This document shows positions 1-21,337 of a DNA stretch of 38,343 nucleotides, piece by piece. Source of the DNA: a virus; the IMG/VR virus record IMGVR_UViG_3300030098_001220, positions 1-38,343 of that record; one strand, 5' to 3'. The notes beneath the pieces were generated by a model. That model was not told where the DNA came from. It made no database searches and worked only from the letters and a program-made list of their open reading frames with translations. The position numbers and the translations under genes are program-made. Within the stretch, counting starts at the first letter, position 1; each line of letters begins with the position of its first letter.

Positions 1-2042
1 CTTTCATACATTGCAATATCTGTTGGTCCTGACCACCCATCTTCACAATATGTGTATAATGCATCACACGTACCGTCCCATGTGTCATCACAACAGTAAG
101 GATCTACTTGTATCACCCACTCAAAACAAGCGTTAGGAATGTAATATACATCACCAGAGTTACACCCAGCACTATAATAACACGAACTGTCTGCCACGTT
201 AGCAAGCGGATTGTAATTAATAGCGGTCGCATCAGTGCAGCCAGACAAAGGATAAATACAGCTACCATTATCAGTATTTGCATTATCGTCATAATTAAGT
301 GCTGTGCTGTCAGTGCATCCATAATAGTAAGGTATACAGTTTCCATTATCAGTATTACAAGTATCACAATAGTTCCACATCGTTGGATCAATGCACCCAA
401 ATATTACAGGTATACAAGACCCATCGTCAGTGTTAGCTAACGAATTATAATTAAAGGCTGCACCATCAGTACAGCCCCAGACAACGGGTATGCATGAACC
501 ATCATCTGTATTCGCTAATATGTCGTAATTAAAAGCCGTACTATCTGTACAACCTAATACAACATCTATACACGTACCATCATCAGCGTTTGCTAATGGG
601 TTATAATTTATTGCATCAACATCCATACATCCGTATACAAAAGGAGTACAAGATCCATTGTCTGTATTAGCAAGAGGATCAAAATTAAACATTGTACTAT
701 CTGTACATCCATATATAAATGGTATGCAACTTCCGTTGTCAGTATTTGCAAGTATATTATAATTAAACATACTAGCATCTGTACAACCATATATGTAAGG
801 TATACATGTGTCAGACGCTGTAGCTAACGGATCGTAGTTAAACATTGTTGGGTCCATACATCCATACACATAAGGTATACAAGAACCAGCTATTTCTACA
901 TTTGCTAAAGGATCATAGTTATATGCTGTACTGTCCATACATCCTAAAACAACTAAAGTAGCACATGACCCATCATCATAATCGTAAGATGCATCATACT
1001 CTAAATATATAGGATTAGTACATCCTGGATTGTAATAACAGCTACCATCGTCTGTGTTTACAGAATCATCATAGTTTACTGCTAAACTGTCTATACAACC
1101 ATATGTTCTTTCTATACAGTTGTTGCCACAATAAGGCTGACCTGTAATAGGAAAGAATGGTGGTATAGGATTAACAAAACCACCTGATATATCTATAGCT
1201 ACATAATCCTCAGAATATAACTTATAACCACATTGTACTGCTGTAAAGTCTGATTGCTGTGTTATCTCAAATACTGCTCTTACAGGATAACCTGCTACTA
1301 AATTTATAAAGAACGTTGTATCAAAACCATCTACTAATGTATATGTTCCAATGTCTTGATAATTAAACGGTGGTAATAAACTAGTTGCTTGTGCTAACTT
1401 TAAACTAGATCCAGCCCAACCGTTACCAGCTAAATCTGTTAATTCTAACTCATGCATACAGCTATCTATGTTTATATCTGTATTAGCTGAGTCTATATAG
1501 TTATATGCTAGTGAGTCTGTACATCCGTATATTCTTGGTGTAAAACACATACCTGTGTCTAATGTAGCCGCTAAATCAAACTCTACATAGCTACTATCCA
1601 TACACCCAAATACTGGTGGGGGCGGAGGGCATCCTGACGTATATATTGTATCAAATATTTGATAACCAAAATCTGCACCATCAAGTTCCCATATAGTATC
1701 TCCACATTGTTCTATATATACAGAACCATCATTACCACCCCATAAACTACCAGCAATACCATCACCATACAAATCGTTTATAACAATATAAAAACTATCA
1801 ATAGGTGCACAAGCTGCAGCATATTGCGGTTCATAATCTATAATACCTGTGTATGGTCCACCTTGCATTAATGTATCACCAAAGAAAGTCATTATATACC
1901 AAGATGTTTCTTCTGGATATTGATCAGGGTTTATTGTAACGTTTAAACTCCACGTACCTGGAGGGCACTGTCCAAATGTTGTAGCTACAGTAAATACTGT
2001 AACCATAATTAGTGCATATAATATTTTTGTAAAATTATTCAT
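1..2042 (-). CDS. Exported Cys-rich tandem-repeat surface protein (partial, runs off the window start)
   Basis: An open minus-strand frame starts at the ATG at 2042-2040 and runs without a stop to base 1, giving at least 680 residues; the C-terminus lies outside the window. The N-terminus is a typical signal peptide (MNNFTKILYALIMVTVF, then VATTFGQ), so the protein should leave the cytoplasm. About 120 residues of a domain with acidic and aromatic residues follow, then a proline run (GCPPPPP). After that come about 14 copies of a 26-residue repeat of the form GC-[TM]-D-x3-x-NY-x2-x-A-N-x-D-x-GSC, broken once by a domain of about 110 residues. The repeat is shared with the 1468-residue protein at 7176-11582. 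The start overlaps the stop of the upstream gene as TAATG, so it is translationally coupled. A surface or adhesive role is inferred; a signal peptide is odd for a virion protein. A type IX secretion C-terminal domain cannot be checked here. Confidence 0.85.
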   Translation of the reverse strand, partial: MNNFTKILYALIMVTVFTVATTFGQCPPGTWSLNVTINPDQYPEETSWYIMTFFGDTLMQGGPYTGIIDYEPQYAAACAPIDSFYIVINDLYGDGIAGSLWGGNDGSVYIEQCGDTIWELDGADFGYQIFDTIYTSGCPPPPPVFGCMDSSYVEFDLAATLDTGMCFTPRIYGCTDSLAYNYIDSANTDINIDSCMHELELTDLAGNGWAGSSLKLAQATSLLPPFNYQDIGTYTLVDGFDTTFFINLVAGYPVRAVFEITQQSDFTAVQCGYKLYSEDYVAIDISGGFVNPIPPFFPITGQPYCGNNCIERTYGCIDSLAVNYDDSVNTDDGSCYYNPGCTNPIYLEYDASYDYDDGSCATLVVLGCMDSTAYNYDPLANVEIAGSCIPYVYGCMDPTMFNYDPLATASDTCIPYIYGCTDASMFNYNILANTDNGSCIPFIYGCTDSTMFNFDPLANTDNGSCTPFVYGCMDVDAINYNPLANADDGTCIDVVLGCTDSTAFNYDILANTDDGSCIPVVWGCTDGAAFNYNSLANTDDGSCIPVIFGCIDPTMWNYCDTCNTDNGNCIPYYYGCTDSTALNYDDNANTDNGSCIYPLSGCTDATAINYNPLANVADSSCYYSAGCNSGDVYYIPNACFEWVIQVDPYCCDDTWDGTCDALYTYCEDGWSGPTDIAMYE
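168..1607 (-). repeat. Array of about 14 Cys-rich 26-residue (78-bp) coding repeats
   Basis: In the minus-strand frame the segment encodes about 14 units with two conserved cysteines (GC at the start, SC near the end), a central NY or NF and an acidic DDG or DNG. Two units lie near 1607-1450 and twelve more run back to back from 1100 to 168. The units are diverged in DNA sequence but constant in length, which points to old duplication under protein-level selection. Each unit has two cysteines, so one disulphide per unit, and an Asp/Asn-rich loop that could bind calcium; both are inferences. Confidence 0.85.
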
Positions 2043-2758
2043 TATAAACTATTTCTATCTTTTATGTCTGCTTCTATTAAAGCTATGTCTGCATCGCTTA
2101 CCAGTTCGTTGAAAATAACTACTTCAAAAAACTTAGCTCCAATAGCTGTAGCAGCTGTAGCACCTAGTCTAATTATTGAAAATGTTCCAGCAGCTGTAAT
2201 TGGAAAAGCACCGCCTAAAGAAGTATCGTCTTCAAAAAAATCAACGTTATTACTACCATCTCTTTGAAGTCTAAATAAAGCTTTGCTAGTACTAGGAGCC
2301 GTTGCTGCTATTGGTGCACTATCAGAAACTCCTCCAAATTTAAATCTAAACTTAGCGTCATTATTACCATGAGACATTCTAAAAAAGTTTGTTCCACTAC
2401 CTTGAAGTATTGTTTCTGCATTTAAATCATCCGCCACATCTAAAACCATGAATATAGTAAAAGCACCTGTTAAATCCATTTCAGTAGTAAAGTTTGCTTC
2501 TGGTCCTGTGCCACTAACATCTTGCTTTAAATGTAACGCCCCGCCAGTAAATTCTACTCTATCATTTGTACCAGCTGAAGCATCGTCTATAGGATTACCT
2601 TGGCCACTACTATCAGCCCATATAATTCTATCGCCATCGTCTGATTGACCTTCGTTAAACTTTAGCCATGTTTGTATACCAGATACATTAGCTATGCTAA
2701 ATGCTGATAACGGTCTATTACCACTAGATGATGTTGTATTTGATATTCCTAACCTCAT
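2042..2758 (-). CDS. Concanavalin/LamG-like jelly-roll protein, probable adhesin
   Basis: 238 residues. The pattern SGIQTWLKF, then WADSSGQGN, VEFTGGALHL and a row of alternating beta-strands (AFTIFMVLDV, FRMSHGN, KFRFKFGG, FFEVVIFNE) is that of the concanavalin A-like/LamG jelly-roll fold, which usually binds glycans or acts as a receptor-binding module. No signal peptide is visible. It lies between an exported thioredoxin-fold protein and the exported repeat protein and overlaps both neighbours at TAATG junctions (2758 and 2042), so the three are translated together. Binding a host surface sugar is likely, but the ligand cannot be told. Family assignment is from pattern only. Confidence 0.6.
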   Translation of the reverse strand: MRLGISNTTSSSGNRPLSAFSIANVSGIQTWLKFNEGQSDDGDRIIWADSSGQGNPIDDASAGTNDRVEFTGGALHLKQDVSGTGPEANFTTEMDLTGAFTIFMVLDVADDLNAETILQGSGTNFFRMSHGNNDAKFRFKFGGVSDSAPIAATAPSTSKALFRLQRDGSNNVDFFEDDTSLGGAFPITAAGTFSIIRLGATAATAIGAKFFEVVIFNELVSDADIALIEADIKDRNSL

Positions 2759-3114
2759 TAAAATTTACTCATTATTAGTTCGTCTATATAGTTTTGTACC
2801 TCTTTTCTTGTTGCCTGCATAGCAAAACTAAGATCTGCTTGAAATCTTTTTACTTCTTCGCCATCATCAAATATTATAATAGTTGGTACTACAGCTATTT
2901 GATATTTCTTTTGTAAATCATTATTGTCTATCATATGTGATTCTTTATCACAATCTCCTAGTTTGTTAAACCACTCTACGCTGTTTTGTTCATTCCAACT
3001 AGCATTAAATTGCATCGCGGTCACCTGAGCTGAGCACGTAACACAAACCAGCAATAATGGCAATACTAGCAAGTATGTCGCAAATGTTTTCCATATTAAA
3101 TTTAGTTTTTTCAT
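2758..3114 (-). CDS. Exported thioredoxin-fold protein lacking the CxxC active site
   Basis: 118 residues. Residues 1-30 form a signal peptide (MKKLNLIWKTFATYLL, then a hydrophobic stretch ending CSAQ). The rest fits the second half of a thioredoxin: FNASW at 36-40 in the place of the usual F-x-A-x-W-C-x-x-C, the cis-proline VVPT at 75-78 followed by the strand IIIFDDGEEVKRF, and a C-terminal helix. The cysteines expected just after W40 are replaced by NEQN, so a disulphide reductase activity is not expected; the only Cys residues are in the signal peptide and at 55. The role may be structural or a decoy in the periplasm. The start codon abuts the stop of the upstream gene (TAA-ATG). Confidence 0.65.
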   Translation of the reverse strand: MKKLNLIWKTFATYLLVLPLLLVCVTCSAQVTAMQFNASWNEQNSVEWFNKLGDCDKESHMIDNNDLQKKYQIAVVPTIIIFDDGEEVKRFQADLSFAMQATRKEVQNYIDELIMSKF

Positions 3115-3390
3115 TTATCTTAATTCATCAATCTTATCTTCCATTCTAATCATTCGCTCTTCTAATTTTTTAACATCATCGCGTGTTTCTATAATTGTAT
3201 TACGAATGTTTATATCCTTCATATCAAATTCCATTTTTGATACTTCAGGTTTTGGAAGTTCTTTTGCTTCTGATATGTCAGCTTGTAATGTAAACCACAT
3301 ACCAACAAGAGTAAAAATAAGTGCAGCTATGCCTGCTAATGTTTTTATACTTATTTTAAAGCTAGTGTCTTCGTTTAATTCTTTTGCCAT
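3115..3390 (-). CDS. Small membrane protein with coiled coil (holin- or spanin-like?)
   Basis: 91 residues from the ATG at 3390 (MAKELNEDTSF). A GTG four codons upstream, at 3402, would give 95 residues, but the ATG has the AAAATAAAATGGCA context shared with other late genes and follows the stop of the 28-residue ORF by one base. There is one membrane segment near residues 17-36 (TLAGIAALIFTLVGMWFTL), then a charged region rich in Lys and Glu that should form a coiled coil (ETRDDVKKLEERMIRMEDK). One membrane helix plus coiled coil fits a class III holin, an inner-membrane spanin or a tail accessory protein. Which of these it is cannot be decided from sequence, and no endolysin is seen next to it. 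Confidence 0.65.
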   Translation of the reverse strand: MAKELNEDTSFKISIKTLAGIAALIFTLVGMWFTLQADISEAKELPKPEVSKMEFDMKDINIRNTIIETRDDVKKLEERMIRMEDKIDELR

Positions 3391-3391
3391 T

Positions 3392-3478
3392 TTATTTTTC
3401 ACAATTAACAGAACAGTGCCCTAAACACACTTTTCCAAAAGTTAAAAATTTAATTATATTACATAGTGTCTTTTTCAT
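3392..3478 (-). CDS. 28-residue Cys-rich micro-protein
   Basis: A tiny ORF: ATG at 3478-3476, TAA at 3394-3392, product MKKTLCNIIKFLTFGK followed by VCLGHCSVNCEK. It fills the only gap between two late genes: it starts 2 bases after the TAG of the 344-residue protein and ends 1 base before the ATG at 3390. This exact packing, in an operon whose genes touch everywhere, is the main evidence that it is real. It has four cysteines (6, 18, 22, 26) and a short hydrophobic stretch (NIIKFLTF), so it could be membrane-associated or bind metal. The function is unknown. Confidence 0.6.
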   Translation of the reverse strand: MKKTLCNIIKFLTFGKVCLGHCSVNCEK

Positions 3479-3480
3479 AT

Positions 3481-4515
3481 CTAAAATATTATATAGTTTA
3501 TACCTAATTTAAAATCGTACCACTCTTTGTTCCAATACTTATTGTATTTACCTTCAATAAAGCATCCTAAATTTTTAGTAGCTTTTAGTCCAAATATTAA
3601 TCCCCCTGAGTAATCATACCACTGCTCTCCATTATTGAAGTTGTGGTATGAGTATTGTCCGCCATCATCATAGTGATAAGGCATTAGGTTACCCCAGGAA
3701 TGTAACCAAAAGTTTTTCTTATAATAGTAATAATCAAATCCTACTACTATTGAATATTGCCATTGATTAGCTAGTGCATTTCTTTTTTTCTCTACATACT
3801 CTTCTAGCACCTGTGGTATAACCACCTCATTCCAAACTTCTGCACTAGTAGCAACAACATTTCCATTAGGATCACTATACTCAGATTCATATACATCAAC
3901 GTTATATCCCTGTTCAATAGCTAGCTGAGTGTAGTGTAAATTACCAGATTGCATTGTCCATTCTTCTAATGGATCATAACCGTATGGTTCAGCTAATCTA
4001 GTAACTCCTCCAAAATTAAACGATAACTTTTTGTTACCTCGTAATCTAAATCTTTGCGTTGCTTCATAGTATTCTATGTCTGCAAACCCATCTTTAATAT
4101 ACTCTACTTTTGTAAACCAAATAGGTCTTACATATCGTATAAAATGATGTTGATCTAAATACTCTATACCTTCTTGTCTTTTATATTCTATCTCAAATAG
4201 ATACTCAAAGGGATTTCTTCCTACACTTGCTGCATCAGAAAAAGATGTTTCTGTACCATCTTTAAACGGTGATGTGCCTTCATATTGAAACCTTTGTATC
4301 TTACGTATGCCCATAGCTAATGAATAGTCATACGGGGTACGTATTGTATCATATACAAGACTACTACCATCTACAGAATATACTTCTCTATCTGATAGTG
4401 ATGTGCCGCCATTTGCTGCTACATAGAATGTAGAAAACTTAAAAGCTTTTCTAAACTGTGCAGTTGCAGATAGTGACGCAAAAAGAAATACTAATATAAG
4501 TACTCTCAATTTCAT
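3481..4515 (-). CDS. Exported outer-membrane-like beta protein
   Basis: 344 residues. Residues 1-20 are a Bacteroidota-type signal peptide (MKLRVLILVFLFASLSATAQ). The mature part is rich in Tyr, Trp and Phe with alternating strands (FEYLFEIEYKRQ, WQYSIVVGFDYYYY, YDYSGGLIFGLK, LGCFIEGKYNKYW) and ends in a strand with a terminal Phe (LGINYIIF), all typical of outer-membrane beta-barrels. A barrel protein in a phage late operon is unusual. It could change the host surface, help lysis, or be an exported relative of a host protein. The stop is 2 bases before the 28-residue ORF. No family was recognised. Confidence 0.6.
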   Translation of the reverse strand: MKLRVLILVFLFASLSATAQFRKAFKFSTFYVAANGGTSLSDREVYSVDGSSLVYDTIRTPYDYSLAMGIRKIQRFQYEGTSPFKDGTETSFSDAASVGRNPFEYLFEIEYKRQEGIEYLDQHHFIRYVRPIWFTKVEYIKDGFADIEYYEATQRFRLRGNKKLSFNFGGVTRLAEPYGYDPLEEWTMQSGNLHYTQLAIEQGYNVDVYESEYSDPNGNVVATSAEVWNEVVIPQVLEEYVEKKRNALANQWQYSIVVGFDYYYYKKNFWLHSWGNLMPYHYDDGGQYSYHNFNNGEQWYDYSGGLIFGLKATKNLGCFIEGKYNKYWNKEWYDFKLGINYIIF

Positions 4516-7175: not shown

Positions 7176-10100
7176 TTAGTTTAAATCTGCAAAAGTGTCT
7201 TCGCCTGTTTCTTCTGCTTCGTCCTCTCCTAGTGACCCTCCTAATTCTGTAACATCAGAAACATCATCAAAAGTAGAATCATTCACTGTTACAATAGTTC
7301 CACCTATATTAAAGGTTCCTGTAACCTCAGTATTTGAGTCACCCGTTTCTCTATATGCTGGTATGCCGCAGTCTTTACAATACTCTTTAGCAAAGCTAAG
7401 AAAATTTGATAAATAATTTTCAGTCTCATTTTGTATTTGGAAAGTTATACATTTTCTCCAACCGCTTGCTGGGTCAGTAGAAAAAGGATCTATATGCAAA
7501 CCTGTATTAGATATTGCTACATATATTACTCCAGCCAGTCCAAGTGGATTTGGAACAAATGCTCTTCTTACATATGTACCTAATGCATATGAGCCTACAT
7601 TAGCAGGGTTCCAAAATTGAGAACCAGAGTTATTCCACCTATCAACACAATTTACTTGCGCTGCCGCTAAACTAGGTGTTGCTGGATCTGTGCAATTGTA
7701 TATACAAGGTAATCCTTGTCTAGACATTAAGTCTTGTATAATAACCATCTTCCATGTTTCCATGTTAGAACAGTTGTTTCCTAGTCCTGTTATGTGTTTA
7801 GTGTAAAATCTATGTCCAGATCTTGCAATACACTCAGCATTATAATCTAATAAATTAGCAATACCTCTTGGAGTACATGCTGGAATAGTTGTATCTACAT
7901 CATCACAATCTTCTACACATCCATTATATTCATATTCACAAGGACATGTAGCATCTGTATAATTTGCGGCTGGATTATAGTTAACAGCATTTTCATCCAT
8001 ACACCCACATATTGTATTATCAGGACAACAAGTAGGACTAAATGTTCCATCAAGACATGGGCACCCTCCTGGAGGTGGTGGATCATCAAACTCACAACAC
8101 CCATCATCTACATTTGCTAGAGGCACAGATACACCAGCACAATTTACAAGATAGTTAAGTGCACTAGGATCTAAACACCCATGAATAATATTACCACCAC
8201 TTCCATCATCGCAATCTGCTATCGCTAATGTTACCTGAGCTGTAAAACCTGCGCAGGGACGGCTTATTGAAACAGCACCATCAGCATCAGTATCAAATGG
8301 AATTTCTGTATTGCCGTTAGCATTGATAAAAGCATCATCCCAGAATATTACTTGAAACATATATGCTCCACCAGGAAGATCAGTAATATTTATTGTTTCA
8401 TTAGCTGTAAGAGTATCAGCTTCAAAAGGAGACAAAGTATCTAAGTTTAATATAGGATCAATATTAGTGACTGGGCCTGCAAACCAGCTTCCATAATTAA
8501 GATCAGCAGTCATATGCGTTAAAATCCAAGCATACCCAACACCAGCTGGGTTAGTTATATTCGATAATAAACTTGTTGCATCTGGCAAGTTAACAGTCAA
8601 AGAGCCTGTAGAATCGTCATCACACAATCCTGTAGTTTCATTATAAGTTGATGTAGAATCTACTATATTACTAAATTGTACACCTCCAGATGCATTTGCT
8701 GCTGCCTCATATTCTTCTAGTTCACAACAGTCAGTATCTAACCCTCCATTATTTTGCAAATAACCTTCGCACGATGCTTGTGTAGGAAAACCAAGACCAG
8801 CTGTACCTATTTCACTTACACATGTACCACATCTGTCTGGTACCCAAGTTACACCATTTCCATATAGACATGAGCCATCGTCAATAGTTGCTAGTGGATT
8901 AAAATTAGTCGCTGTTGGATCAGTACAACCTAAAACATCTTCGATAGGGTCTGGATCATAAATACAACTTCCATCATCTATTACTGCATTTGGATCAAAA
9001 TTAATTGCTGCTGGATCTGTACATCCAGATGGAGGATTAACAGGACAACACCCTTCTATTGTAGATATTTGTGCTGCAGTAAATGGTACGAATACATCAA
9101 CAGTTTCTTCCCAAACATTATTTGTTCCATAGTTATATGAAAAATTCATACCTGTAGGAGAACCATGAACTTGTATTAGAGCACACATGTCATTAGTATA
9201 TGGATCAAAAGCGGTGCCACTACCTTGATTAAGGATAGAAGTTGTAGCATTAAATGAGCCTTGTGCAATAATGGTCCCATCAGCCATAACTATGTTATGG
9301 TTTATCTGTAGGAGGTCAAAGGCTTGACCATTACCGCTATATGGTGAAATCGTTAAAGGGTCACCATTTGTATTTAAAGTAGTAATTGTAGGTGAATTCC
9401 CATCAATTAAACCACTTCCTCCAACTGAATTTATTACTTCATTTGGATTAAATGACGGATAACATAAATAATTGCTAATTATATATTGTGTAGCTATATG
9501 AATATCTGTAGCTGAAGACCAATCAGCAAACTGACCAGTATTGGGACCATTGCTAATAGTATAAGCATTAACAGCCATAACATCAGCTATGTCAGGATTT
9601 GATACCGTTAAACCTTGTATTACAATCTTTGGATAGTCTCCAAGTAGCGCATCATTTGCACAAATTACATCTACCCCAAAATTTAAATCATTACAACCAT
9701 CAAAGTCAGGGTCTGGTGGTAAACATGAACCATCATCAAAACTAGCAACTGGGTTAAAATTTGGAGAGTTTGGATCAGTACATCCTGCCTGCTCTACTGA
9801 ATACTGTCCAAAAATAGTATAACACTGTTCTACTTCATCATCACCATCGTGAGTTCCATCGTTATCATAAACAGCTACTATAAAATAATCTCCTGCTTCT
9901 AAACCTGTAAATGTATGTGCACCCCCAGTTCCTGAGAATGTTGTAATTAATGTTGAAGTTGGAGTTAGATAACTAAGACCATCTCCTCCACCTTGTATTA
10001 TCAACTGTGCAGCAAATACCTGCAACGCATTGCCCAGTTTATATAGCTTATAGTCAATTGGGTCAGCCTGATTACTAGTGGTAAATTCTGAAGCAGGGTC

Positions 10101-11582
10101 AAAAATTAAAGGAGTTGGTCCAGGTAGAACAGTATAAGGTGATGCAAAATTAACTCCTGCAAAAGAAATAGTACCATCAGAAACAGCTGTTCCCGCAGGA
10201 GTTGTTGTTGCAGGGGTCGTGCTTGTTCCTATACCTTCTTCAAATAAAGGTCCTAATGTTTGTAAAAAGCTACCACTACCTGCTTCTAACTGACCTGATA
10301 TGGCATTACAAAATACACAGGCAGCATCTTCATTTGTAGTAACAGTATTATCGTGGTTAATTGCAGATACAGTGTCTTTACATCCAAAAGAGCTCTCTAC
10401 AACATCTATATCTTCTCTAATATTAAATTTTATAAAACCAGTACAGGCTGTTCCACTAGTAGAATCCACTACTGTAATATTGTAGCTTCCTGGAAATAAA
10501 CCAGTAACAGTAAAAGGAGAGGAACTTATTCCTGAAGTTGTTGATGTGCTGTAACTTAATGTTGGGTTAAGTAAATAATTAGCTTGTACAACCGCAGTAA
10601 AGTTTGCTGTACCACCTGTAATAGTAACAGTAATTGCACCATCAGCTGTATCTGTAGTTGCTGGAGTTATATTTGATAAAGTTATTTCAAAATCATCACA
10701 TCCAGTAGTATACTCACAACATCCTCCATCTACATTAACATAAGAATTAAGCCTTTGTGAAGTAAGAGCAATGCCATCACAATCGTTAGCATGCGTAACA
10801 CCAGAGTCTGTACAAGGCAATAAATTGTCAACACATCCTGTTAAATAATAGTTTGAGGCTGTAGGATCTAAACATACGTTGTTTATAATAAGATCCCTAG
10901 CCTGCATTTCATTAAAGACAAAACCACCCACAACTGTTGGTTGATCTTCTCCTGTAACGTTTGGAGTTGTAGTAAATAATAAACTACTGTTATTATCAAA
11001 TCCTCCTCTAGGTTTACCTAAATTTTTAGAAGTAGACCCACTGTTTGTATATTTTATGTTATTTAAAAACTGATTTTGTAAATCAGTAGACGCTACATAT
11101 GCTGCATTGCCAGAACTTAAATAATAAAAATCTCTTTTACTACTCGTATCTAAATGTGGATTTGTAGATTCTGGAAATATTACTAACTGTTTAAATATTG
11201 CTTTATCATAATATAAAGCATCTGTAATATTATATCCAGTTTTTGAGCTTTCTTCTATAGAAAATGTAAAAGACCTTTGTAAACTTGCATATGGAACTGG
11301 TAAAGCTTGTGCTTCTGTTAGTTCATTTAAAACAACTTGACTTCTATCCCCGTTTTGAAATTCAATGTCAAATGTACCTGAGCCGTTATAAGTTAGTACT
11401 ATTTCAATTGTTCCGTCTCTTAGAGATTGTCTAGTATCAGAAGTGATTACACTTAAACCCTTAAGAGTAGGTGTTATAGATACAATAGGATTCTCTGCAT
11501 GAGAATTGAAAATAGCGTAGTTTACGCCAGCAGCATCTTTTAGATACTTATATGAATAAAATGTCTGTAATACCTTTGACAT
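7176..11582 (-). CDS. Giant modular adhesin-like tail protein with SprB-like and Cys-rich repeats
   Basis: 1468 residues. The first about 160 residues look like a virion-binding head with no signal peptide. Near residues 295-385 is a segment of SprB-repeat type (DGAITVTITGGTANFTAVV, then GLFPGSYNITVVDS), known from flavobacterial gliding adhesins. From about residue 400 to 1230 at least five copies of the GC-D-P-x3-NFNP-x-A-x-x-DDGSC repeat occur (near 600, 850, 885, 1135 and 1195), separated by beta domains. A Cys-rich stretch (PGGCPCLDG, CCPDNTICGCM) precedes a C-terminal domain and an acidic tail (GEDEAEETGED). It lies between virion genes, so a large tail-tip or fibre protein that meets the host surface is the best guess. 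The likeness to host adhesins suggests modules taken from the host. Confidence 0.7.
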   Translation of the reverse strand: MSKVLQTFYSYKYLKDAAGVNYAIFNSHAENPIVSITPTLKGLSVITSDTRQSLRDGTIEIVLTYNGSGTFDIEFQNGDRSQVVLNELTEAQALPVPYASLQRSFTFSIEESSKTGYNITDALYYDKAIFKQLVIFPESTNPHLDTSSKRDFYYLSSGNAAYVASTDLQNQFLNNIKYTNSGSTSKNLGKPRGGFDNNSSLLFTTTPNVTGEDQPTVVGGFVFNEMQARDLIINNVCLDPTASNYYLTGCVDNLLPCTDSGVTHANDCDGIALTSQRLNSYVNVDGGCCEYTTGCDDFEITLSNITPATTDTADGAITVTITGGTANFTAVVQANYLLNPTLSYSTSTTSGISSSPFTVTGLFPGSYNITVVDSTSGTACTGFIKFNIREDIDVVESSFGCKDTVSAINHDNTVTTNEDAACVFCNAISGQLEAGSGSFLQTLGPLFEEGIGTSTTPATTTPAGTAVSDGTISFAGVNFASPYTVLPGPTPLIFDPASEFTTSNQADPIDYKLYKLGNALQVFAAQLIIQGGGDGLSYLTPTSTLITTFSGTGGAHTFTGLEAGDYFIVAVYDNDGTHDGDDEVEQCYTIFGQYSVEQAGCTDPNSPNFNPVASFDDGSCLPPDPDFDGCNDLNFGVDVICANDALLGDYPKIVIQGLTVSNPDIADVMAVNAYTISNGPNTGQFADWSSATDIHIATQYIISNYLCYPSFNPNEVINSVGGSGLIDGNSPTITTLNTNGDPLTISPYSGNGQAFDLLQINHNIVMADGTIIAQGSFNATTSILNQGSGTAFDPYTNDMCALIQVHGSPTGMNFSYNYGTNNVWEETVDVFVPFTAAQISTIEGCCPVNPPSGCTDPAAINFDPNAVIDDGSCIYDPDPIEDVLGCTDPTATNFNPLATIDDGSCLYGNGVTWVPDRCGTCVSEIGTAGLGFPTQASCEGYLQNNGGLDTDCCELEEYEAAANASGGVQFSNIVDSTSTYNETTGLCDDDSTGSLTVNLPDATSLLSNITNPAGVGYAWILTHMTADLNYGSWFAGPVTNIDPILNLDTLSPFEADTLTANETINITDLPGGAYMFQVIFWDDAFINANGNTEIPFDTDADGAVSISRPCAGFTAQVTLAIADCDDGSGGNIIHGCLDPSALNYLVNCAGVSVPLANVDDGCCEFDDPPPPGGCPCLDGTFSPTCCPDNTICGCMDENAVNYNPAANYTDATCPCEYEYNGCVEDCDDVDTTIPACTPRGIANLLDYNAECIARSGHRFYTKHITGLGNNCSNMETWKMVIIQDLMSRQGLPCIYNCTDPATPSLAAAQVNCVDRWNNSGSQFWNPANVGSYALGTYVRRAFVPNPLGLAGVIYVAISNTGLHIDPFSTDPASGWRKCITFQIQNETENYLSNFLSFAKEYCKDCGIPAYRETGDSNTEVTGTFNIGGTIVTVNDSTFDDVSDVTELGGSLGEDEAEETGEDTFADLN

Positions 11583-18372: not shown

Positions 18373-19092
18373 TTATGCTCTTTTTCTAGACCTTCTAATA
18401 GCCTCTTTACCTTTAGTAAATATACTTGCCACCTGTCTTTTACCCATTACTTTGGCTCTTTGTTCACCTACCGTAAGGATTTGGATCTTCCTAGCAAACG
18501 GTTTATTAACTCTTTTAACCTTAGCCACAGTAGCGCGAGCGTCAGCAGGTGTGGCAAAACGTATACCAACAGTATCCTTTGGATTTTCATCCGTATATAA
18601 TCTTCTACCACTTCCTTTTGGTTTTTTACCTGTTCCTGTTACTGGGTCTTTACCATGCTTAGATCTATAACCGCCCTTTTTGTAAGCTGGTGTCTCTATA
18701 ACTGTGCCACGCTTTGGTCCTGTAGGTAAATCTTTGATGCCTGGTGGTACGTTCTGATACGATTGTACTAAATGTCCTTGGTCATCCACCTTTGTAATAT
18801 TGATAGGTACTTGCATACCTTCAGTATTAAATGATGTATTAGCTGGTACGTCTGGAAAAACCATACTAGCATCTGTATTACCCATAGCTTGTTGCTCACG
18901 TAAACCTACTTGTTGTTCTTGTGGAGTTTGTGCAACTAACATATTCTCTTGCTTAGCCTGTGCCTCTGCTTGTAACATTGCTGGTACATCAGCGCCCTGG
19001 TTAGCCATTTGATACAAGTCTAATATGCTACCTTCAAATCCAGTAGACCTAGCCATGTCTAATATTTCTCTACGCATTTGGTTATTCAGCAT
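18373..19092 (-). CDS. Virion-associated basic protein of unknown function
   Basis: 239 residues. The N-terminal half is helical and Gln/Ala-rich (LYQMANQGADVPAML, AEAQAKQENMLVA). The C-terminal half is very basic with Gly/Lys linkers (AYKKGGYRSKHGKDP, GTGKKPKGSGRRLY) and ends IRRSRKRA. It starts inside the last codons of the portal gene (11-base overlap), so it is coupled to it. The basic half may touch DNA or the acidic scaffold-like protein encoded next. Not recognised as a named family. Confidence 0.55.
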   Translation of the reverse strand: MLNNQMRREILDMARSTGFEGSILDLYQMANQGADVPAMLQAEAQAKQENMLVAQTPQEQQVGLREQQAMGNTDASMVFPDVPANTSFNTEGMQVPINITKVDDQGHLVQSYQNVPPGIKDLPTGPKRGTVIETPAYKKGGYRSKHGKDPVTGTGKKPKGSGRRLYTDENPKDTVGIRFATPADARATVAKVKRVNKPFARKIQILTVGEQRAKVMGKRQVASIFTKGKEAIRRSRKRA

Positions 19093-21337
19093 TGCCCTCT
19101 CTTGCTATCTGATTTTTCTCGCTATCGTTATCCATTTTAGCACCAAGCTCTCTTTCTCTAATATCTAGCTCACGCTGTTTGTTTTCAAAGTCTTGAATTA
19201 ACTTCTGCATATTGAAGCTATCTAACTCTGGATTCTTTCTAGCTTCTGCGTTGATTAATGCTACCTCAATATCTAGCTGTCTATCTTTTTCTTTATCAAT
19301 AGAAGCTCTTTCCATTTCTTGCTGTTGCATTTGCATCTGCTGTTGAGCTTGTGCTTGTTGAGCTTGTTGTTGTGCTTGCTCTAATTCTGCTGCAGCTTTC
19401 TCCGCTGCTTTTAACTTGCCTTTTATTTGACTGAAGTTTTCAGACTCAAACATCTCAGCAACCATAGAAGCTTTAGTACCATTCTGAATCATAGCCTGTG
19501 CGAGACCCTTAATCTGATCTAATCTTTGTTGATCCTTGCCAGCGTCAGATACAAAGATACCATAGTTAGCCTCCATATGTTGCAAAGTGTCAATGTCTAA
19601 AAAGTCTGCAGTACCATCAGGCATTACAAACATACCTTGTTTACCAGTAAGCCATGCTTCTTTTGAATAGTCAAGCAGTGCTTGTAAATCTCTTTGTTCT
19701 AGTCTAGCAAATTTTCTAAATAAATCTTCTGTAATATGTGAAGATTGTAGTATAGCTTGCTGTGAACTAGCTTTACCTTCATATGCACCAATCGTACCTT
19801 GTCTTTGTCTAGACACACCAGATATTTTCTCCCACTCTTGTAGTATAGATTCTAGTAGTGTTATGTATTGTGATATAGTCTTGATTGACATATCAAGAAC
19901 TGATTGATGTTGTGGGTTAAGTTGTATACCTTCTTTGTTATAATCTACCCATGCAATACCCGTACCTTCTACATAGTACATAAATTTATCCATGTCCCAT
20001 TTCTTAGGAATCATGTTAATATCAAACTGTGCAATAATATCTTTACTTCTAGCTATTGCCAGTTCCATTCTATACTTGTAGATGTTGTAGTTTAACTGAT
20101 AAGGTATACCAAGTGATACTAGTGAAATATTGTCTGCATTTATATCAGAGTACTTTCTACCATTGATAGGCAGTTTGCAAGTAGATGCATTGTCAATAGA
20201 TAACCTTTGATTAGCTACAGGATTAATGTTAATGTAAAATCTACCATCAATACGTGTACCTTCCCATACTTCATTTACCCATAGATAAGTTACCTTAGCT
20301 CCTGTTTCTTTTAGCTCTTTAGGCATTCTAAACTTTTCATCAACCTCCATCTCTTCCATAGCTCCAGTCTCTGGGTCCATGTATTCTAAGAAACCTATTC
20401 TTTTTCTTGACTTCCAATATACAGTAACTACTTCTATTAATCTGTTTCTGTATGTGTTTGGATCAGAACCTGCTCTTGCTCTTCTGTATAATAGATATGA
20501 TTCTGGATCTGATTGTCTAGGCTCTTCTAGTTCTAGTACTTGTTCATCTGTCAATGACTCATAGAATGAATCTATAACTGATGATGCATGTACATACTTT
20601 CTAACTAACGCCCAATCTCCATCTTCTACAAACTCTATGTCTGGATCTTTATCATAATCAATATCAATAGGATTTAATACTTCATAGAATGGCTCTTTGT
20701 TTCTAACACCTCTATGTGTATATACTTCACCTGATACTAAAAAGTGAAACCAAGCTTTTTGTATCTTATCATACACTTCTGACTGTTGCATTATGTATGT
20801 CATAGCATGTTGTCCTTTGATAGCTCTGTTATCTACATAACTATTCTCAAACTGATCTGCTATTTCTTTAGGCATTGGAATATCTTCTGGAGTTTCAAGA
20901 TTTTGCATTGCTTCTGGATTAGTTTCAGCTAATACTTTTAAGAATCTTTGTTGTAAGTTTTGATATATAGCTTGTTGCTTTGCTTTTTCTTTTTGACTTA
21001 CAGCGTCTCCATTTTGTACTGTAACGGTGTAATTAAGAGGTCTTTTAGACTTCTCACCTAATAAAAGATCAATAATAGGTTTGATAATAGGATAGTTACG
21101 CATTTTAGAGGGGAAATTTGTACGGGACTTGCCGTAAGGTTGTGTAACGTAACGATAGTCATCCTCATAAATTACACCGTTGTAGTAATCATACAATCTC
21201 TTTAGGTCATCTTTTCTTTCGTTGACCCCATATAAAGACAACTCTATGTAGGCTTCTACACAGCTTTCTCTCCATTTTTTATTCTTCTTTGATAAAGGCA
21301 GCTTTTGCTGCGGTATTTTGTCTCCCCCTAGATACAT
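19082..21337 (-). CDS. Portal protein (probable)
   Basis: 751 residues, directly after the large terminase, the normal portal position. The N-terminal region has helices and the phrase LYDYYNGVIYEDDYRYV, as in many portal proteins. The middle has beta and stem regions (RYKMELAIARSKDIIAQF-like helices around residue 430). Residues about 500-590 form helices as in portal stem and clip (ISQYITLLESILQEWEKISGV, then RQRQGTIGAYEGKASSQQA, a stretch typical of portals). The C-terminus is Gln-rich coiled coil (AAAELEQAQQQAQQAQAQQQ) and a charged tail. The protein forms a dodecameric ring through which DNA enters the head. The ATG at 21337 lies 7 bases after a TAATTTTG element (see the finding on leaderless starts). 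Confidence 0.8.
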   Translation of the reverse strand: MYLGGDKIPQQKLPLSKKNKKWRESCVEAYIELSLYGVNERKDDLKRLYDYYNGVIYEDDYRYVTQPYGKSRTNFPSKMRNYPIIKPIIDLLLGEKSKRPLNYTVTVQNGDAVSQKEKAKQQAIYQNLQQRFLKVLAETNPEAMQNLETPEDIPMPKEIADQFENSYVDNRAIKGQHAMTYIMQQSEVYDKIQKAWFHFLVSGEVYTHRGVRNKEPFYEVLNPIDIDYDKDPDIEFVEDGDWALVRKYVHASSVIDSFYESLTDEQVLELEEPRQSDPESYLLYRRARAGSDPNTYRNRLIEVVTVYWKSRKRIGFLEYMDPETGAMEEMEVDEKFRMPKELKETGAKVTYLWVNEVWEGTRIDGRFYININPVANQRLSIDNASTCKLPINGRKYSDINADNISLVSLGIPYQLNYNIYKYRMELAIARSKDIIAQFDINMIPKKWDMDKFMYYVEGTGIAWVDYNKEGIQLNPQHQSVLDMSIKTISQYITLLESILQEWEKISGVSRQRQGTIGAYEGKASSQQAILQSSHITEDLFRKFARLEQRDLQALLDYSKEAWLTGKQGMFVMPDGTADFLDIDTLQHMEANYGIFVSDAGKDQQRLDQIKGLAQAMIQNGTKASMVAEMFESENFSQIKGKLKAAEKAAAELEQAQQQAQQAQAQQQMQMQQQEMERASIDKEKDRQLDIEVALINAEARKNPELDSFNMQKLIQDFENKQRELDIRERELGAKMDNDSEKNQIAREGNAE

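What the first reader, a model, noticed from the sequence alone, without database searches (positions are those of the whole stretch)
1..4515. Three of the last genes of the phage late operon carry signal peptides
The exported repeat protein (2042 to base 1), the thioredoxin-fold protein (3114) and the outer-membrane-like protein (4515) start with Bacteroidota signal peptides ending GQ or AQ. Virion proteins do not need export. The set, with a lectin-like protein in the same coupled run, could be a phage-made surface or envelope programme acting late in infection: lysis help, altered cell surface, or release of a sticky secreted protein.
Basis: partly seen in the sequence, partly recalled or inferred. 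Interest (0 to 1): 0.75.

Follow-up and report, generated by a model that had tools for sequence, protein, structure and literature searches.

The report
Phage module for coating host surface
These viruses of Bacteroidota-type bacteria carry a block of genes for proteins that are shipped out into the host cell's envelope, one of them tagged for the host's own surface-secretion machine, and unrelated phages share the block, which points to a late remodelling of the infected cell's surface.

Summary
The window is a fragment of a crAss-like phage. The three genes encode a predicted 12-strand outer-membrane barrel (OMP), an exported thioredoxin fold without CxxC (Trx), and an exported repeat protein (Rep). 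In relatives that extend past base 1, Rep ends in a type IX secretion (T9SS) type A sorting domain. With a small membrane/coiled-coil protein (TMcc, 3115-3402) they form a conserved module: all four in 66 of 68 OMP loci with enough flank. A signal-peptide rule fits OMP 116/117 and Trx 100/101, against 5/1121 background ORFs. Carriers include crAss-like phages whose portals are 13-30% identical while their OMPs stay 53-86% identical, and contractile-tailed phages. It is missing from a close relative that keeps most neighbouring late genes. The lectin-like gene is not a conserved part. Best reading: an accessory, horizontally shared module that puts a T9SS-delivered protein on the host surface late in infection, probably against superinfection or receptor binding. 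Lysis help is the main rival. Phage T9SS cargo is in print; my searches found no description of this module.

The parts
3481..4515 (-). OMP: exported 344-aa predicted 12-strand outer-membrane beta-barrel
   Evidence: Signal peptide (one search rule on the family); AlphaFold2 mean pLDDT 77.5, 12 strands; barrels top the PDB lists; C-terminal F in 95 of 114 complete homologues
3115..3402 (-). TMcc: one N-terminal membrane helix plus coiled-coil-like tail; many homologues start at the internal ATG (MAKELNEDT)
   Evidence: Read from the sequence; PHROG hits of unknown function; beside Trx in the module
2758..3114 (-). Trx: exported thioredoxin fold without CxxC
   Evidence: PF00085 in 38 of 42 members at E<=0.1; PDB thioredoxins by profile and by fold; CxxC past residue 25 in 0 of 101, [VI]PT motif in 101 of 101
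3..2042 (-). Rep: exported Cys-rich GCTD-repeat protein, cut by the window edge; most complete relatives end in a T9SS type A sorting domain
   Evidence: signal peptide; 12 repeats by pattern in the window part; sorting domain in relatives
2042..2758 (-). Lectin-like (LamG/ConA-type) protein, coupled here but variable in relatives
   Evidence: PF13385 in the L082 counterpart, E 3.4e-6; no Pfam hit for the window's own; Lec238 best hits near 5 and LecL082 best hits near 5 of 68 OMP loci
7176..11582 (-). Tail-region protein with the same kind of GCTD repeats, no signal peptide
   Evidence: 5 repeats by pattern; starts without a signal peptide; L082 homologue fails the rule
19082..21337 (-). crAss-like portal, which places the virus
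   Evidence: phrog_6547 E 3.5e-125; 31.5-34.2% identity to crAss-like portals in the 20 rows listed

Best explanation
OMP, TMcc, Trx and Rep are an accessory envelope module made late in infection. SHOWN by sequence: conserved signal peptides on OMP, Trx and Rep; a predicted outer-membrane barrel; a thioredoxin fold without the redox motif; a T9SS type A sorting domain on most complete Rep relatives; a conserved four-gene set with overlapping genes; presence in unrelated phages; absence from a close relative's contig. INFERRED: the genes are late (from position and strand); the host Sec pathway exports OMP, Trx and Rep; the host T9SS then carries Rep across the outer membrane and fixes it to, or releases it from, the cell surface; OMP and the redox-dead Trx act as dedicated partners of Rep (docking barrel, periplasmic adaptor), with TMcc as inner-membrane end. 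The most likely gain is that the dying cell's surface is changed so that further phages, or the phage's own progeny meeting debris, no longer adsorb.
For: Signal-peptide conservation. T9SS sorting domain: PF18962 in 27 of 38 Rep members at E<=0.1, best 3e-14; TIGR04183 in 35 of 35 tails at E<=0.01, best 3.6e-16 (tails picked for the PNP motif); PDB T9SS sorting domains 8glk and 8glj at E 3.9e-9 and 9.3e-9. Of 107 complete Rep-profile proteins, 88 have a hydrophobic N-terminus with a PNP tail (69) or a TDxLGR tail (19); the other 19, non-exported, have neither tail. Module: 66 of 68 loci, or 59 of 61 counting each OMP once; three gene orders, 84, 19 and 2 of 105; TMcc/Trx overlap in 80 of 111. 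Horizontal spread: 20 phages, 190 pairs, portal identity median 18.4%, OMP 65.0%, rank correlation 0.00; contractile-tailed carriers. Dispensable: the G054 contig lacks OMP, with an MCP 93% identical to the window's. Rep's N-terminal domain matches 26 of 149 genomes of the class of the L163 MAG, that MAG among them, so Rep looks built from host surface-protein domains.
Against: No expression, localisation or binding data. Lysis-type genes lie near (DUF5675 or the 3TM holin within 8 kb of 39 of 68 OMP loci), which fits an egress role as well. Full-length Rep of L082 gives no NCBIfam hit at E<=0.1 and PF18962 only at E 0.05, 14.3 bits against a cut-off of 27; its tail alone scores 16.8 against 23. 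19 of 88 exported Rep end in another tail that my sorting-domain profile does not recognise. Nothing ties OMP or Trx physically to Rep: within the 20 phages OMP and TMcc identities do not correlate (rho 0.00), OMP-Trx only 0.37. Loci were found by OMP similarity, which limits the range of OMP identity and weakens correlations.
Confidence: 0.55

Rival explanations
1. Egress module: TMcc is an inner-membrane spanin-like protein, OMP the outer-membrane partner, and the secreted Rep loosens the outer layer; the set helps breach the Bacteroidota outer membrane.
For: TMcc has the layout of an i-spanin (membrane helix, then coiled coil; read from the sequence). DUF5675 near 38 of 68 loci and the holin near 22 of 68. 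In L163 an endolysin gene follows Trx directly. At the same spot G054 has a 71-aa membrane/coiled-coil protein with weak Rz-like spanin hits (E 0.0015 and 0.01, among similar hits to PHROGs of unknown function).
Against: The G054 contig does without OMP, Trx and exported Rep. TMcc itself gives no spanin hit. T9SS delivery of a long Cys-rich repeat protein is not a lysis step that I know of (recalled). Coiled coils give weak hits easily.
Confidence: 0.25
2. Auxiliary adhesion or nutrient module: the barrel and the surface protein help the infected cell stick to particles or take up a substrate during infection, like a phage-borne uptake locus.
For: Barrel, periplasmic protein and surface protein together; Rep's N-terminal domain resembles parts of host proteins. 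A published phage carries T9SS-tagged glycosidases (PMC7468147, passages read).
Against: No enzyme domain recognised in Rep beyond weak single-member Pfam hits and no transporter family for OMP.
Confidence: 0.13
3. Virion components: the proteins end up in or on particles, for example acquired while crossing the envelope.
For: They sit among tail-fibre genes, and Rep shares its kind of repeats with the tail-region protein 7176-11582.
Against: Conserved signal peptides and a T9SS tail direct them away from the cytoplasm where tailed phages assemble; a close relative's contig lacks them.
Confidence: 0.05

Closest known systems
Cryophage T9SS cargo genes (PMC7468147, passages read)
   Same: Phage genes with T9SS type A sorting domains that would use the host's system; the authors suggest inter-strain competition or superinfection effects
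   Different: Those are an endoglucanase, a GH39 and a PA14 protein, variable between variants; the passages read name no conserved barrel, thioredoxin or inner-membrane partner
Cluster-2 crAss-BACON phages (PMC6949934, passages read)
   Same: T9SS sorting-domain proteins noted upstream of the head genes in crAss-BACON gut phages
   Different: No partner module or export of other proteins in the passages read; BACON rather than GCTD repeats
SprB/SprF-type T9SS adhesin with its dedicated PorP/SprF barrel in Flavobacterium (recalled)
   Same: Secreted surface repeat protein with an adjacent outer-membrane barrel gene
   Different: Type A sorting domain here, type B there (recalled); OMP shows no sequence match to a Pfam barrel family apart from one weak YfaZ hit; the genes belong to phages
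Phage T5 Llp (recalled; only a search listing seen)
   Same: Exported phage protein acting in the host envelope
   Different: Llp is a small lipoprotein; no T9SS, barrel or module (recalled)
Rz-type spanins
   Same: TMcc layout: membrane helix plus coiled coil
   Different: TMcc has no spanin profile hit; OMP is a predicted barrel, not a small lipoprotein

Membership tests
T9SS type A cargo | N-terminal Sec signal peptide | tested here: met
   88 of 107 complete Rep-profile proteins have a hydrophobic N-terminus together with a PNP or TDxLGR tail; 92 of 120 pass the stricter rule
T9SS type A cargo | C-terminal sorting domain (TIGR04183/PF18962) | tested here: met
   TIGR04183 in 35 of 35 chosen tails at E<=0.01; PF18962 in 27 of 38 at E<=0.1; L082 alone stays under the curated cut-offs; 19 of 88 exported members have another tail. 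The window's own tail lies outside the window.
T9SS type A cargo | T9SS-dependent secretion in a host | not testable with these tools
   Needs a host and a T9SS mutant
PorP/SprF-type partner barrels | Sequence match to that Pfam family | tested here: not met
   11 families listed at E<=1 for 63 members, none of that name; the only barrel-like one is YfaZ, one member, E 0.076
PorP/SprF-type partner barrels | Outer-membrane barrel of that fold | tested here: inconclusive
   Barrel predicted; many unrelated barrels lie at Z 9-11.5
Thioredoxin (redox enzyme) | CxxC active site | tested here: not met
   CxxC past residue 25 in 0 of 101
Thioredoxin (fold) | Thioredoxin fold with cis-Pro | tested here: met
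   model confidence modest, pLDDT 69.1, pTM 0.46
Two-component spanin | Inner-membrane subunit with periplasmic coiled coil | tested here: inconclusive
   Layout read from the sequence; window TMcc hits only PHROGs of unknown function at E<=0.1; L163 TMcc weakly hits phrog_473 (virion structural, 0.059) and phrog_1193 (hemolysin, 0.28)
Crassvirales | crAss-type portal, major capsid protein and large terminase | tested here: met
   phrog_6547, 11589 and 6681, E 9.7e-87 or better; that these are crAss families rests on the portal search

The most novel reading that the evidence does not exclude
Unrelated phages of one host group share a phage-made cargo-presentation device: a dedicated barrel, a redox-dead periplasmic thioredoxin and an inner-membrane helper that together take over the host's type IX secretion system to dress infected cells in a phage-coded repeat coat, comparable to SprF serving SprB but carried and traded by viruses.
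Probability: 0.3. Interest if true: 0.85.

Novelty: new variant of a known kind. Interest (0 to 1): 0.7.

Why it matters
Phage T9SS cargo had been noted as single genes. A conserved four-gene envelope set, shared by crAss-like and contractile-tailed phages, makes 'what do phages do with the host's T9SS' directly testable and gives exact genes to delete or express.

Tried and rejected
Essential virion or lysis genes: rejected as the simplest reading because G054 (28 kb; portal 85% identical; MCP 93%) has no OMP match and no OMP, TMcc or Trx profile match at the site between g121 and DUF5675. It keeps MCP, g387, g310, g166, the g1468 type, Fib507, g133, g121 and DUF5675; g125 and g98 were not hit there. 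Its contig ends 7 kb past DUF5675, so a copy elsewhere in its genome is not excluded. G064 lacks the module at that site too, but its contig ends 1.4 kb past DUF5675. G075 and G073 do not reach the site. The OMP hit in L248 (E 6.5e-5, a 75-aa ORF opposite g387) was taken as chance.

Lectin as part of the set: rejected. Host origin of OMP and Trx: not found. OMP in 1 of 295 genomes of the class of the L163 MAG and Trx in 1 of 149, both times that MAG itself. A motif-based scan of GTDB genomes gave 4 loci, all MAG contigs; 3 of the 4 carry neighbouring module genes, the fourth ends inside OMP. The MAG of L163 has T4-type portals on five contigs, not on the module's contig, so its host label is unreliable.

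T4 label: the T4 portal family PF07230 was NOT found in G035, G038 or G370 (G371 not searched), and phrog_262 also rings in 5 of 14 control genomes, so I write 'contractile-tailed phages with a T4-type DNA polymerase'.

Named phages: no tblastn match for OMP, Rep, Trx or TMcc, nor for two divergent OMPs at E<=10 except four Caulobacter phage hits at E 0.5. One unnamed BFVD protein matches OMP (TM 0.68, 24% identity); its phage was not identified.

A 23-aa peptide in G054 resembles the Trx signal peptide (E 0.001 in a four-sequence test), perhaps a deletion scar; too short to lean on. The alternative Rep tail was sought in host genomes: 4 of 149, 7 of the 10 matches in the phage-laden MAG; undecided. 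One search undercounted Rep through a strict signal-peptide rule; replace it. 21 of 28 portal-relative records have no OMP; by their contig lengths most do not reach the site. Papers: six searches found no description of the module; the library is open-access PMC only, and searches listed 15 of 282 and 15 of 33 papers. Habitat was not checked.
Full report
What the window is. It is a 38,343-base virus record. TerL, portal and MCP match phrog_6681, 6547 and 11589, and the portal is 31.5-34.2% identical to crAss-like portals in the 20 rows listed. The structural genes run on the - strand towards base 1.

The observation. The three ORFs and their signal peptides are as described. Signal peptides are conserved while their letters vary: 116 of 117 OMP and 100 of 101 Trx homologues meet a Q-rule test, against 5 of 1121 other ORFs in the same loci and 151 of 4360 shuffled N-termini. 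The rule was made after seeing the sequences. The Q-rule itself is published (PMC5837995, abstract and outline seen). 37 of 114 OMPs have a CC[AGS]Q junction, often behind an earlier Cys, that might also be read as a lipoprotein signal.

The parts. OMP: 12 strands, mean pLDDT 77.5, pTM 0.72, five models from 59.4 to 77.5. PDB matches are general barrels (best Foldseek E 1.2e-6 with TM 0.34; VIA Z up to 11.5, rmsd 5.2, 185 aligned). No Pfam barrel family apart from one weak YfaZ hit. Trx: thioredoxin fold; CxxC in none of 101, [VI]PT motif in all 101. TMcc: one membrane helix and a coiled-coil-like tail, read from the sequence. Rep: an N-terminal domain with matches in 26 of 149 genomes of the class of the L163 MAG, that MAG included; GCTD repeats, 12 by pattern in the window part; and in most complete relatives a T9SS type A sorting domain. 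The window ends before that domain. Its last residues are the same as those that precede the domain in L082 and L103. Against: full-length L082 Rep gives no NCBIfam hit and is under Pfam's cut-off; the evidence rests on the family.

The module. Of 129 loci with OMP (4 of them MAG contigs; 117 distinct OMPs), 68 have more than 5 kb on both sides, and 66 of these hold all four genes, also under a strict test for exported Rep; counting each OMP once, 59 of 61. L135 lacks TMcc and Trx, L149 lacks TMcc. Orders among 105 loci with all four: OMP-TMcc-Trx-Rep 84, TMcc-Trx-Rep-OMP 19, Rep-OMP-TMcc-Trx 2. TMcc and Trx overlap in 80 of 111. The lectin is variable. In L120, TMcc and Trx are 100% and 97% identical to the window's but OMP only 72%, so parts recombine.

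Who carries it. The crAss-like portal is in 36 of 50 records with OMP and 28 of 34 further ones; two of the first 50 are whole MAGs. A contractile tail sheath (phrog_23) is in G035, G370, G038, G371 and on the L163 contig itself (G049:C32), and in 0 of 7 other carriers searched (2 of 14 controls ring). A T4-type DNA polymerase in two adjoining pieces is in G035, G370 and G049:C32, and G035 has GroEL. None of G035, G370, G038, G371 and G049 has the crAss portal. The T4 portal family was not found in G035, G038 or G370. In a quick OMP tree the six rows that I labelled T4-like group with one other row, L207, on a weak branch (support 77), so one transfer between the two phage kinds would do. For 20 crAss-like carriers that I chose from the 36, portals are 12.7-94.3% identical (median 18.4) and OMPs 53.1-93.9% (median 65.0), rank correlation 0.00; 138 of 190 pairs have portals under 30% with OMPs at 53.1-85.8%. 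The OMP set was gathered by similarity, so its lower bound is partly set by the search; the mismatch in conservation is still large and points to exchange between phage lineages.

Absence. The G054 contig has a portal 85% identical and an MCP 93% identical to the window's, most of the same tail genes, g133 and g121, then a 23-aa peptide, two small membrane/coiled-coil proteins and DUF5675, with no OMP, Trx or exported Rep. The 79-aa one of these has matches in 10 other loci, in several just before TMcc, and the 71-aa one has weak Rz-spanin hits. So the spot has to do with membranes in any case, and TMcc may be closer to lysis than OMP, Trx and Rep are.

Reading. Conserved export, a T9SS tail, presence and absence among close relatives and sharing between unrelated phages suit a host-interaction device better than a virion or core lysis part. 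Surface change against further adsorption is my first choice; T5 Llp is a recalled analogue. Two papers already note phage T9SS cargo (PMC7468147 and PMC6949934, passages read). I found no paper with this module in six searches, two of which listed only part of their hits.

Noticed in passing
window 7176-11582 and 3-2042: A tail-region protein without signal peptide and the exported Rep share the same kind of GCTD repeats (5 and 12 by pattern); possibly matching surfaces of virion and host coat.
   Followed up: partly
L247:7288-7839 (- strand): In module-less G054 a 23-aa peptide like a Trx signal peptide and two small membrane/coiled-coil proteins occupy the site.
   Followed up: partly
L082:14884-15351: DUF5675 (PF18925, E 1.8e-27) lies near many copies of the module (38 of 68) and has matches in 162 named phage records; of the ten rows listed one is annotated L,D-carboxypeptidase/transpeptidase and one peptidoglycan hydrolase: candidate lysis enzyme of this group.
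   Followed up: partly
L129, L153 and others, end of Rep: A second Rep tail type (TDxLGR...YDDGxVEKK) in 19 of 88 exported members; similar stretches in 4 of 149 genomes. Perhaps another sorting signal.
   Followed up: partly
L163, L164, L165 (genome contigs): Phage-like contigs binned into MAGs named Flavobacteriales, Nitrosopelagicus and Maricaulis; the first bin has T4 portals on five contigs.
   Followed up: no
L215:18129-19763: A GroEL gene (phrog_5725, E 9.8e-156) in the contractile-tailed carrier G035.
   Followed up: no
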